Origin: Nitrospirota bacterium
GTDB taxonomy: Bacteria > Nitrospirota > Thermodesulfovibrionia > Thermodesulfovibrionales > SM23-35
NCBI GenBank assembly: GCA_029883145.1
Contig: JAOUJR010000104.1
Span: 1-6,381, forward strand
DNA length: 6,381 nt
Direction: 5' to 3'
Position 1 is the first letter of the stretch, and each line of letters starts with the position of its first letter. This document shows, in pieces, positions 5,136-6,381 of the stretch. The translations under genes were made by a program, and so were the position numbers. Under the pieces are notes generated by a model. It was not told the DNA's origin, made no database searches, and saw only the letters and a list, made by a program, of their open reading frames with translations.

Positions 5136-6381
5136 ATGGGATTTTGGAGTACAATAAAGAAGGATTATGAGGCTGTTTTTAAAAAAGACCCTGCAGCACG
5201 GTCCTGTCTTGAGGTCATTTTTGCATATCCGGGTTTTCATGCAATCTTTTTTCACAGGATTAATCACTTCTTCTGGAAAATAGGAATCCCTGTACTCCCG
5301 AGGTTGTTGTCACATGTGGTACGGTTTCTTACAGGAATAGAAATTCATCCTGCAGCAAAAATCGGTCCAGGGTTTTTTGTAGATCATGGTATGGGTGTTG
5401 TTGTTGGTGAAACAACAGAAATAGGGCAAGACTGTCTGTTATATCAAGGGGTGACGCTGGGAGGGACAGGAAAAGAAAAAGGGAAGAGGCATCCGACCCT
5501 CATGAATAATGTGGTAGTTGGTACTGGTGCGAAAGTGCTCGGTCCAATAACCATTGGGAATAACGTGGTCATTGGAGCCAATTCTGTGGTGCTCAAATCC
5601 ATCCCGGATAACTCTGTCTGTGTGGGGGTACCCGGCAGAATTACCAAAAAGAAAATTATCAGGATGACTACCGAGGATGGATTAATTGAGGTGATGGACT
5701 ACTTCCCTGACCCGATAGTGGAAAAGATTAAAACTTTAGAGGCTCAGGTAGATGCGCTTTCAAAGAGAATAGATGCATTAGAAAGAACGGGGAAAAGAGG
5801 AGGGAAAATGAGGATTTATAACACTCTCACGAACAGAAAAGAGGAATTTGTGCCCCTATCTCCTGGTAAGGTAATGATGTATGCATGTGGAGTAACCTTG
5901 TATGATTACTGCCACATAGGACATGCGAGGAGCGCGATTGTCTTTGATGTAATAAGGAGATATCTGAAACATAAGGGTTTAGATGTGAACTATGTGAGGA
6001 ATTTTACTGACATTGATGACAAGATAATCAATAAGGCGAAGCAAGAAGGCATTACGTGGGATGCAGTTGCCAGAAAGTATACAGATGAATATTACAGAGA
6101 TATGGACAGACTTGGTGTGGGAAGAGCTGATGTGGAACCAAAAGCAACAGAACATATTTCAGAAATGATAGCTATTATCAAAGGACTTATTGATAAAGGC
6201 TATGCATATGAGGTAGAGGGGAGCGTGTATTTTGCAGTAGACAAATTTCCTGAATATGGAAAGTTGTCAAAGAGAGACATGGAAGAGATGATCGCCGGGG
6301 CGAGAGTTGAAGTGGATGAGAGGAAGAGAAACCCGATGGATTTTGCTCTATGGAAAAAATCAAAAGAGGGAGAGCCATTTT
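5136..6381 (+). CDS. cysE-cysS: Serine O-acetyltransferase fused in frame to cysteinyl-tRNA synthetase (3' end cut by window)
   Basis: 415 residues are visible with no stop codon. Residues 1-224 are a complete short-type (Bacillus-like) CysE, which acetylates serine with acetyl-CoA to O-acetylserine, the first step of cysteine synthesis. A helical N-terminus (DPAARSCLEVIFAYPGFHAI, 18-37) precedes a left-handed beta-helix of hexapeptide repeats (about 68-155). It carries GIEIHPAAKIGPGFFVDHGMG (67-87; H84 is the catalytic His, E69 replaces the E. coli Asp of the dyad as in Bacillus CysE), GVTLGGTGKEKGKRHPT (105-121) and VGVPGRI (163-169). A coiled-coil-like tail (195-217) and a basic linker RTGKRGGK (217-224) lead straight into Met225 of CysRS. 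That part shows the first zinc ligand C251 in MYACGVT, the HIGH ATP-binding motif (260-263), NFTDIDDKI and RKRNPMDFALWKKSKEGEP, and ends before the remaining zinc ligands and KMSKS. CysE and CysS are often separate neighbours; here they are one frame. A one-base error near the junction would split them (see findings). Confidence 0.85.
   Translation, partial: MGFWSTIKKDYEAVFKKDPAARSCLEVIFAYPGFHAIFFHRINHFFWKIGIPVLPRLLSHVVRFLTGIEIHPAAKIGPGFFVDHGMGVVVGETTEIGQDCLLYQGVTLGGTGKEKGKRHPTLMNNVVVGTGAKVLGPITIGNNVVIGANSVVLKSIPDNSVCVGVPGRITKKKIIRMTTEDGLIEVMDYFPDPIVEKIKTLEAQVDALSKRIDALERTGKRGGKMRIYNTLTNRKEEFVPLSPGKVMMYACGVTLYDYCHIGHARSAIVFDVIRRYLKHKGLDVNYVRNFTDIDDKIINKAKQEGITWDAVARKYTDEYYRDMDRLGVGRADVEPKATEHISEMIAIIKGLIDKGYAYEVEGSVYFAVDKFPEYGKLSKRDMEEMIAGARVEVDERKRNPMDFALWKKSKEGEPF
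5798..5803 (+). promoter_or_regulatory. Perfect internal ribosome binding site at the CysE-CysS junction
   Basis: AGGAGG lies inside the continuous frame, 4 nt before the ATG (5808) where homology to CysRS begins. It codes for the RGG part of the linker. Its presence suggests that free CysRS is also made by internal initiation, or that the two genes separated or joined recently. The spacing is slightly short but workable. Confidence 0.6.
5808..6381 (+). other. cysS: Cysteinyl-tRNA synthetase module with its own candidate start (partial)
   Basis: From the internal ATG at 5808, 191 residues line up from their first residue with free-standing CysRS: MRIYNTLTNRKEEF corresponds to the E. coli start MLKIFNTLTRQKEEF. 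CysRS is a class I synthetase that activates cysteine with ATP and charges tRNA-Cys. Visible parts are the zinc ligand C27, the HIGH motif at 36-39, FTDIDDK, and the region up to KEGEP just before the expected zinc-binding WHIECS segment. The KMSKS loop and the anticodon-binding domain are beyond the window. In the long frame this is the C-terminal module of the fusion, corresponding to residues 225 onward. Confidence 0.9.

What the first reader, a model, noticed from the sequence alone, without database searches (positions are those of the whole stretch)
5136..6381. In-frame fusion of serine acetyltransferase (CysE) and cysteinyl-tRNA synthetase (CysS)
Reading codon by codon from ATG 5136 there is no stop through the whole of CysE, an 8-residue basic linker and the first 191 residues of CysRS. 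Both modules look intact: CysE has H84, the RH pair and the VGVPGRI turn; CysRS has Cys27 and HIGH. These genes are often adjacent, as in Bacillus, but as separate genes. A fusion would tie the cysteine-feedback-regulated entry step of cysteine synthesis to cysteine use in translation. It would place CysRS, usually a monomer, on a CysE trimer or hexamer. It would also bury the CysE C-terminal tail that, in enteric bacteria, docks into CysK to form the cysteine synthase complex. I do not know of a described enzyme of this kind.
Basis: partly seen in the sequence, partly recalled or inferred. Interest (0 to 1): 0.8.

Follow-up and report, generated by a model that had tools for sequence, protein, structure and literature searches.

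The report
Fused cysteine enzymes with inner start
In many members of an order of mostly uncultured Nitrospirota bacteria one open reading frame joins the enzyme that starts cysteine synthesis to the enzyme that loads cysteine onto its tRNA, and a conserved start signal inside that frame is predicted to let the cell also make the tRNA enzyme on its own.

Summary
ATG 5136 opens a frame without a stop to the contig end (415 codons): complete CysE, an 8-residue linker, the first 191 residues of CysRS. It is no sequencing slip: 107 distinct open fusions (window included; 702-725 aa in 94 complete ones), 99 of 149 sampled genomes of the order, one genome of another order of the class, 0 of 66 of other classes. 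Both halves pass curated cut-offs in 9 of 9 full-length proteins tested. The CysE start lacks a Shine-Dalgarno sequence but has a -10 box placed for a leaderless mRNA (82 of 99). Best reading: one gene, two products, a CysE-CysRS chain and free CysRS. A minority with Ile at the junction lacks the usual inner start and is probably fusion-only. No protein or transcript has been observed. I found no description in the papers searched; databases mostly name it cysteine--tRNA ligase.

The parts
5136..6380 (+). Fused frame cysE-cysS, open at the 3' end because the contig ends
   Evidence: intact 708-aa relative P0002
5122..5127 (+). TATAAT -10 box, 8 nt before ATG 5136; predicted leaderless transcript
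   Evidence: -10 box (5 of 6 or better, within -22..-5) in 82 of 99 fusions (window included), 67 perfect, 12.4 expected by shuffling. The two-hexamer promoter scan gives no hit here. No transcript data
5136..5783 (+). CysE module, residues 1-216, with a C-terminal helix (residues 193-216; coiled coil inferred)
   Evidence: TIGR01172 over cut-off; helix 193-216 in the AlphaFold2 model of P0002
5784..5807 (+). 8-codon linker RTGKRGGK that also carries the Shine-Dalgarno sequence
   Evidence: ten different linker lengths among the 107 open fusions
5799..5803 (+). GGAGG Shine-Dalgarno core, 4 nt before ATG 5808
   Evidence: -12.5 kcal/mol here; GGAGG at exactly 4 nt in 70 of 107; mean -10.13 in 107
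5808..5810 (+). Internal in-frame start codon, ATG, of CysRS
   Evidence: ATG 89, TTG 9, GTG 6, ATA 2, CTG 1 of 107
5808..6380 (+). CysRS module, first 191 residues of about 484
   Evidence: TIGR00435 positions 1-191, PF01406; whole CysRS in P0002, residues 225-704, over cut-off

Best explanation
One open reading frame encodes serine acetyltransferase (CysE) fused to cysteinyl-tRNA synthetase (CysRS), and it likely yields two proteins: the fused chain from the first ATG, and CysRS alone from a Shine-Dalgarno-led start codon kept inside the frame. Shown: the open frame, its spread, both intact modules in full-length relatives, and the conservation of the inner Shine-Dalgarno sequence and start codon beyond what the protein sequence demands. 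Predicted: the mRNA starts at or 1-3 nt before ATG 5136 and is read there without a Shine-Dalgarno sequence, giving CysE-CysRS; other ribosomes load at GGAGG 5799-5803 and start at 5808, giving free CysRS. Inferred: the fused chain forms a CysE trimer through its beta-helix and C-terminal helix, with one CysRS on each chain; no stop separates the two, so free CysE would not be made and every CysE subunit would carry a CysRS, while CysRS can be made in excess. Inferred function: it keeps CysE dose below that of CysRS and holds the cysteine-inhibited first step of cysteine synthesis next to the enzyme that spends cysteine in translation.
For: Fusion: 107 distinct open fusions (window included) after 6 of 113 junction rows were dropped; junction spanned without a stop in 99 of 149 genomes of the order (my count); ten linker lengths although about 12 of 216 single-base changes in the last 24 codons would make a stop; both modules over cut-off in P0002 and 8 of 8 further fusions tested. 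On a FastTree of 131 CysRS rows fused/separate needs at least 7 changes, which fits one gain and about six losses. Inner start: anti-SD energy mean -10.13 kcal/mol at the junction, -3.32 at 1468 other in-frame ATGs of the same genes; at or below -6 in 92.5% against 18.9%; synonymous shuffles of the seven preceding codons give -8.73 (sd 0.19, lowest of 200 -9.25). Gly at codon -3 is GGA in 74 of 83, against 23% of Gly codons in these genes. In the nine-member TTG clade, of 31 all-Leu columns only the junction is TTG in all nine. All six Val codons there are GTG. GGAGG stands 4 nt before the codon in 70 of 107, the spacing also of an unfused CysRS gene, L214. Leaderless first start. In one search no fused genome but the split G096 shows a second match at E <= 1e-60, so this is presumably the main CysRS; G031 has a distant 409-aa relative, 29% identical.
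Against: No protein or transcript data; the two products are predicted. The start is not universal: ATA at the junction in L035 and L037 and CTG in L167, CTT with no start codon within 12 codons in the out-of-order fusion L208, and Ile in 40 of 221 fused proteins from two biased searches, five of which have Met one residue earlier. The Shine-Dalgarno energy is weaker than -6 in 8 of 107. The linker's amino acids alone already give -8.73 in shuffles, so part of the signal could be protein-level. Of 14 unfused relatives with a start found, only 3 (L202, L213, L214) have an energy below -9; most have -2 to -7, so a strong Shine-Dalgarno sequence is not needed for CysRS as such. ATG to GTG is a single step, and the codon changes are only about 7 events. 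The energies use the E. coli 16S tail (recalled), and the control does not correct for relatedness. Open frames were selected as such, so the absence of out-of-frame indels in the linker is partly by construction. Shine-Dalgarno-like sites inside genes can act as pause sites (passage of PMC4117421).
Confidence: 0.74

Rival explanations
1. A fusion-only gene: all CysRS in the cell is part of the CysE-CysRS chain, and the inner Shine-Dalgarno sequence and ATG are a leftover from the time of two genes or simply code for RGG-M.
For: Fusions without a usable start at the usual place exist and have both modules intact: L035, L037 and L208, and 40 Ile cases of 221 proteins; the genomes of L035 and L037 show one CysRS each at E <= 1e-20.
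Against: The signal is conserved beyond the amino acids in genes diverged to about 60% identity; a leftover would have decayed.
Confidence: 0.14
2. Only the inner product matters as CysRS; the frame is open through the junction as a form of translational coupling, and the fused chain is a minor by-product with a dispensable CysRS part.
For: Inner site strong, first start without a Shine-Dalgarno sequence; the tree suggests about six returns to separate or CysE-less genes.
Against: Frame open in 107 distinct genes over a wide divergence; probable fusion-only clades exist. In this genome no second CysE was found, only distant hexapeptide proteins.
Confidence: 0.07
3. The Shine-Dalgarno-like stretch is a ribosome pause site at the domain border that lets the CysE part fold before CysRS is made.
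For: It lies between two folded domains; internal pausing at such sites is reported in Caulobacter (passage of PMC4117421).
Against: A pause site needs no start codon at fixed spacing, yet GGAGG stands 4 nt from the codon in 70 of 107 and the codon is ATG, GTG or TTG in 104 of 107.
Confidence: 0.04
4. Assembly or sequencing error joins two separate genes in this contig.
For: The window is a short contig of a 444-contig genome and ends inside the gene.
Against: Same frame in other assemblies, among them the single-contig genomes G024, G030 and G114.
Confidence: 0.01

Closest known systems
Separate adjacent cysE and cysS genes (the Bacillus gltX-cysE-cysS order is recalled; cysS, gltX and cysE are listed in one STRING group in a passage of PMC3814617)
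   Same: Same two enzymes in the same order; ispD upstream in L012 and an SpoU methyltransferase gene just downstream in L012 and L034, though neighbours differ in L034, L036 and L038
   Different: There two frames with a stop; here one frame. Separate neighbours are seen in the same order of bacteria in L197-L200 and in L029
Serine O-acetyltransferase, short EpsC-like form (TIGR01172, NF041874)
   Same: Full module over both cut-offs
   Different: CysRS attached at the C terminus; lacks the ~70 N-terminal residues of H. influenzae 1ssq
Bacterial cysteinyl-tRNA synthetase (TIGR00435; PDB 1li5, 8qhp)
   Same: Full length in relatives, with HIGH, KMSKS and the Cys/His/Glu set
   Different: CysE attached at the N terminus
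Genes with an in-frame internal start giving a long and a short protein (CheA and IF2, recalled; CCNA_02448 in Caulobacter, passage of PMC4117421)
   Same: Two nested products from one frame
   Different: Here the short product is one whole enzyme of a two-enzyme fusion; internal initiation is predicted, not observed

Membership tests
Serine O-acetyltransferase (CysE) | Score over the curated cut-off of TIGR01172 | tested here: met
   241.8 of 210.65 bits in the window; 243.7 in P0002; met in 8 of 8 further fusions
Serine O-acetyltransferase (CysE) | Catalytic His and acidic partner; RH pair | tested here: met
   D83-H84 and R118-H119 align with 153-154 and 188-189 of 1ssq, invariant in 59; Glu69 stands where 1ssq has Asp139. 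The roles of these residues are recalled
Serine O-acetyltransferase (CysE) | Acetyl transfer to serine and inhibition by cysteine | not testable with these tools
   Needs an assay
Cysteinyl-tRNA synthetase | Score over the curated cut-off of TIGR00435 | tested here: inconclusive
   259.9 of 340 bits in the window, because the contig ends; 591.5 in the same-genus relative P0002
Cysteinyl-tRNA synthetase | HIGH, KMSKS and Zn ligands | tested here: met
   C251 and HIGH in the window; KMSKS, C431, H456, E460 lie beyond the contig end but are invariant in 59 full-length relatives; ligand roles recalled
Gene with in-frame internal start | Start codon with Shine-Dalgarno sequence conserved inside the frame | tested here: met
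   with the exceptions
Gene with in-frame internal start | Both products observed | not testable with these tools
   No proteomics at hand; the passages of the Sulfobium paper seen do not mention this protein
Leaderless gene | -10 box close to the start codon and no Shine-Dalgarno sequence | tested here: met
   82 of 99; mean anti-SD energy -0.26 at the first start in 100
Leaderless gene | mRNA 5' end at the start codon | not testable with these tools
   No transcript data

The most novel reading that the evidence does not exclude
A cysteine supply-and-demand enzyme: in most sampled members of a bacterial order the main CysRS is encoded on the cysteine-inhibited gatekeeper of cysteine synthesis, and the ratio of two start modes on one mRNA, leaderless for the fusion and Shine-Dalgarno for free CysRS, sets how much synthesis capacity is made per unit of charging capacity, so that translation itself tunes amino-acid supply.
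Probability: 0.3. Interest if true: 0.82.

Novelty: new variant of a known kind. Interest (0 to 1): 0.64.

Why it matters
A tRNA synthetase fused to the entry enzyme of its own amino acid's synthesis would let one test directly whether tethering supply to use changes cysteine flux, mischarging or thiol stress. The nested start gives a natural comparison: lineages with (predicted) both products, lineages probably with the fusion only, and lineages that went back to separate genes. It also shows a frame under two demands at once, coding and initiation, and that automatic annotation has hidden the CysE half under the name cysteine--tRNA ligase.

Tried and rejected
Frameshift or assembly error: rejected. 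T-box or other known RNA element: no Rfam match at gathering score in the window. Tandem repeats: none. tRNA genes: none in the window; tRNA-Thr, Tyr and Gly genes lie downstream in several of the 15 relatives scanned, no tRNA-Cys. Similar fusions outside Nitrospirota: a CysE query from another lineage found 1411 long proteins with E up to 1e-30 among 7997 scored candidates; only the best 120 were listed, most with CysRS domains, a few long CysE proteins without; the eight with an organism in their name are Nitrospirota. An independent origin is therefore not shown, nor excluded. Long open frames before CysRS in L203-L207 matched CysRS only from about residue 215-225 of the query and their upstream parts read as non-coding frames by eye. 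Two-hexamer promoter scan: 6 hits in 4550-6381 against 5.0 in shuffles, none at the gene start; only the -10 box is conserved. Proteomics in print: the passages seen of the Sulfobium paper (PMC5812927) do not mention the protein; its supplements could not be looked up. Paper searches for the fusion: listings only, apart from passages of PMC3814617; no description found. Two searches on internal initiation and leaderless starts gave nothing on this group; search 57 led to the Caulobacter paper (passages only).

Full report
What is there. From ATG 5136 the + strand is open to the end of the contig, 415 codons. Residues 7-168 score 241.8 bits on the cysE model (cut-off 210.65) and residues 225-414 match the first 191 positions of the cysS model. 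The window is a whole contig of a 2.23-Mb, 86.6%-complete genome in 444 contigs and ends inside CysRS.

It is not an artefact. In public genomes and unnamed GTDB genomes the same frame continues to a stop, giving 702-725 aa in 94 complete cases. I collected 113 distinct junctions (near-copies over 97% identical around the junction were merged), dropped six (L029, L039, L040 and L182 hold stops; L192 and L194 lack all or nearly all of CysE) and kept 107 open fusions, the window's own piece L001 included. The stop of L182 lies in the CysE core near a contig start, not at the junction. By my count of the rows, 99 of 149 genomes of the order have a frame open across the junction (the window's among them; one, G096, as a piece ending at residue 305), one has a stop inside (G082, the source of L182), 40 have CysRS without CysE attached (one of them, G122, begins inside CysRS), two show only fragments and seven show no match; one of these seven, G001, is of the same genus as the window. 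In an even sample of the phylum the fusion appears in 6 of 14 genomes of the class, among them the window's and one of another order (G176), and in 0 of 66 genomes of other classes, five of which gave no match at all. A protein search listed its best 120 hits, all full-length or nearly so, named cysteine--tRNA ligase or cysteinyl-tRNA synthetase where named, once 'modular protein'.

History. On a FastTree of 131 CysRS rows, fused against separate needs at least seven changes, against about 23 for shuffled labels. The simplest reading is one gain near the base of the group and about six returns to separate or CysE-less genes: L029 by a stop shortly before the inner start (residue ~220), the L041/L195/L201 group, L194, L196, L202 and the L197-L200 group. 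The tree is a quick one with several long outgroup branches, so the count is rough. In 14 of 15 unfused relatives checked (L029, L041, L194-L202, L211-L214) a start codon stands at or just before the place of the inner start; L199 has CTG there.

The inner start. Just before the CysRS start the window reads GGAGG (5799-5803), four bases, ATG (5808). In the 107 fusions the codon is ATG 89, TTG 9, GTG 6, ATA 2, CTG 1. GGAGG stands exactly four bases before it in 70 of 107; five have none of the six motifs tried. Pairing with the 16S tail (E. coli's, recalled) averages -10.13 kcal/mol, against -3.32 at 1468 other in-frame ATGs and -3.59 at 13375 sampled codons; shuffling synonymous codons of the seven codons before it gives -8.73 with a lowest of -9.25 in 200. 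So the amino acids explain part, and the codon choice adds more. Glycine at codon -3 is GGA in 74 of 83, although GGA is 23% of glycine codons in these genes. In the nine genes with TTG, 31 columns are leucine throughout and only the junction is TTG in all nine; TTG is 7.5% of leucine codons over all the fusions. These tests do not correct for relatedness; the codon changed in about seven events on the tree, and GTG is one step from ATG, so the Val cases alone prove little. At unfused CysRS starts the energy ranges from -2.2 to -12.1, below -9 in 3 of 14.

Exceptions. L035 and L037 have ATA, L167 CTG with a weak Shine-Dalgarno sequence, and L208, the fusion of another order, CTT. Among 221 fused proteins of 600-760 aa from two searches, which are biased samples, the residue is Met 173, Ile 40, Leu 5, Val 3; five of the Ile cases have Met one residue earlier. 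The genomes of L035 and L037 show one CysRS each and both modules are over cut-off. A TTG seven codons upstream, behind an AGGAGA stretch, is visible in both, so a shifted start is not excluded. The Ile group is probably fusion-only, which would mean that CysRS works while attached to CysE.

The first start. It has no Shine-Dalgarno sequence (mean -0.26 in 100; +0.9 here), but TATAAT lies at 5122-5127, which would put the 5' end about two bases before ATG 5136 (inference). A -10 box with at least five of six matches lies within -22..-5 in 82 of 99 fusions, 67 perfect, against 12.4 expected by shuffling and 11% of equal windows further upstream. A leaderless mRNA is predicted. Leaderless genes and in-frame internal starts are both documented in Caulobacter (passages of PMC4117421).

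Structure and setting. The AlphaFold2 model of P0002 (mean pLDDT 85.7, pTM 0.67) shows two largely confident domains, a helix at 193-216 and a weakly predicted linker (213-222 below 50). Trimer formation is inferred from known CysE structures (recalled); no multimer was modelled. The search of this genome found no second CysE or CysRS, only distant hexapeptide proteins. CysK-family proteins are present in 38 of 41 relatives including this genome.

Judgement. The fusion is certain as a gene. Two products from it is the best-supported reading (0.74). What the tether does for cysteine balance is inference. I call it a new variant of a known kind: both enzymes and internal starts are known; this combination I found nowhere in the papers searched (listings), a library that lacks most subscription journals.

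Noticed in passing
window 4615-5043, - strand: HEAT-repeat protein gene whose start also has a -10-like TATGAT a few bases before its ATG and only a weak Shine-Dalgarno sequence (-2.8): leaderless starts may be common in this group.
   Followed up: no
window 178-1155 and 1152-4553, - strand: accA follows dnaE with a 4-base overlap.
   Followed up: no
L035:4001-6115, L037:1750-3864 and 40 of 221 fused proteins: Group with Ile at the junction, without the usual inner start: probable natural fusion-only variants.
   Followed up: partly
G013:C54:4388-5596 and G019:C47:26048-27103; also G031:C12:119069-119554: Second CysRS-like proteins of about 409-421 aa, 29-34% identical to CysRS, two in unfused relatives and one (G031) in a fused one; perhaps MshC-like.
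   Followed up: no
L029 genome (G152:C309:2-1108): A second, partial CysRS match beside the separate one; could be contamination or a second copy.
   Followed up: no
L004, L005, L007-L009, L012, L014, L018 downstream of the fusion: A tRNA-Thr, Tyr, Gly (and, except in L007, second Thr) cluster follows; an SpoU methyltransferase gene lies just after the fusion in L012 and L034.
   Followed up: partly
G001 (same genus as the window, 95% complete): No CysE-CysRS match found at all; perhaps a gap in the assembly.
   Followed up: no
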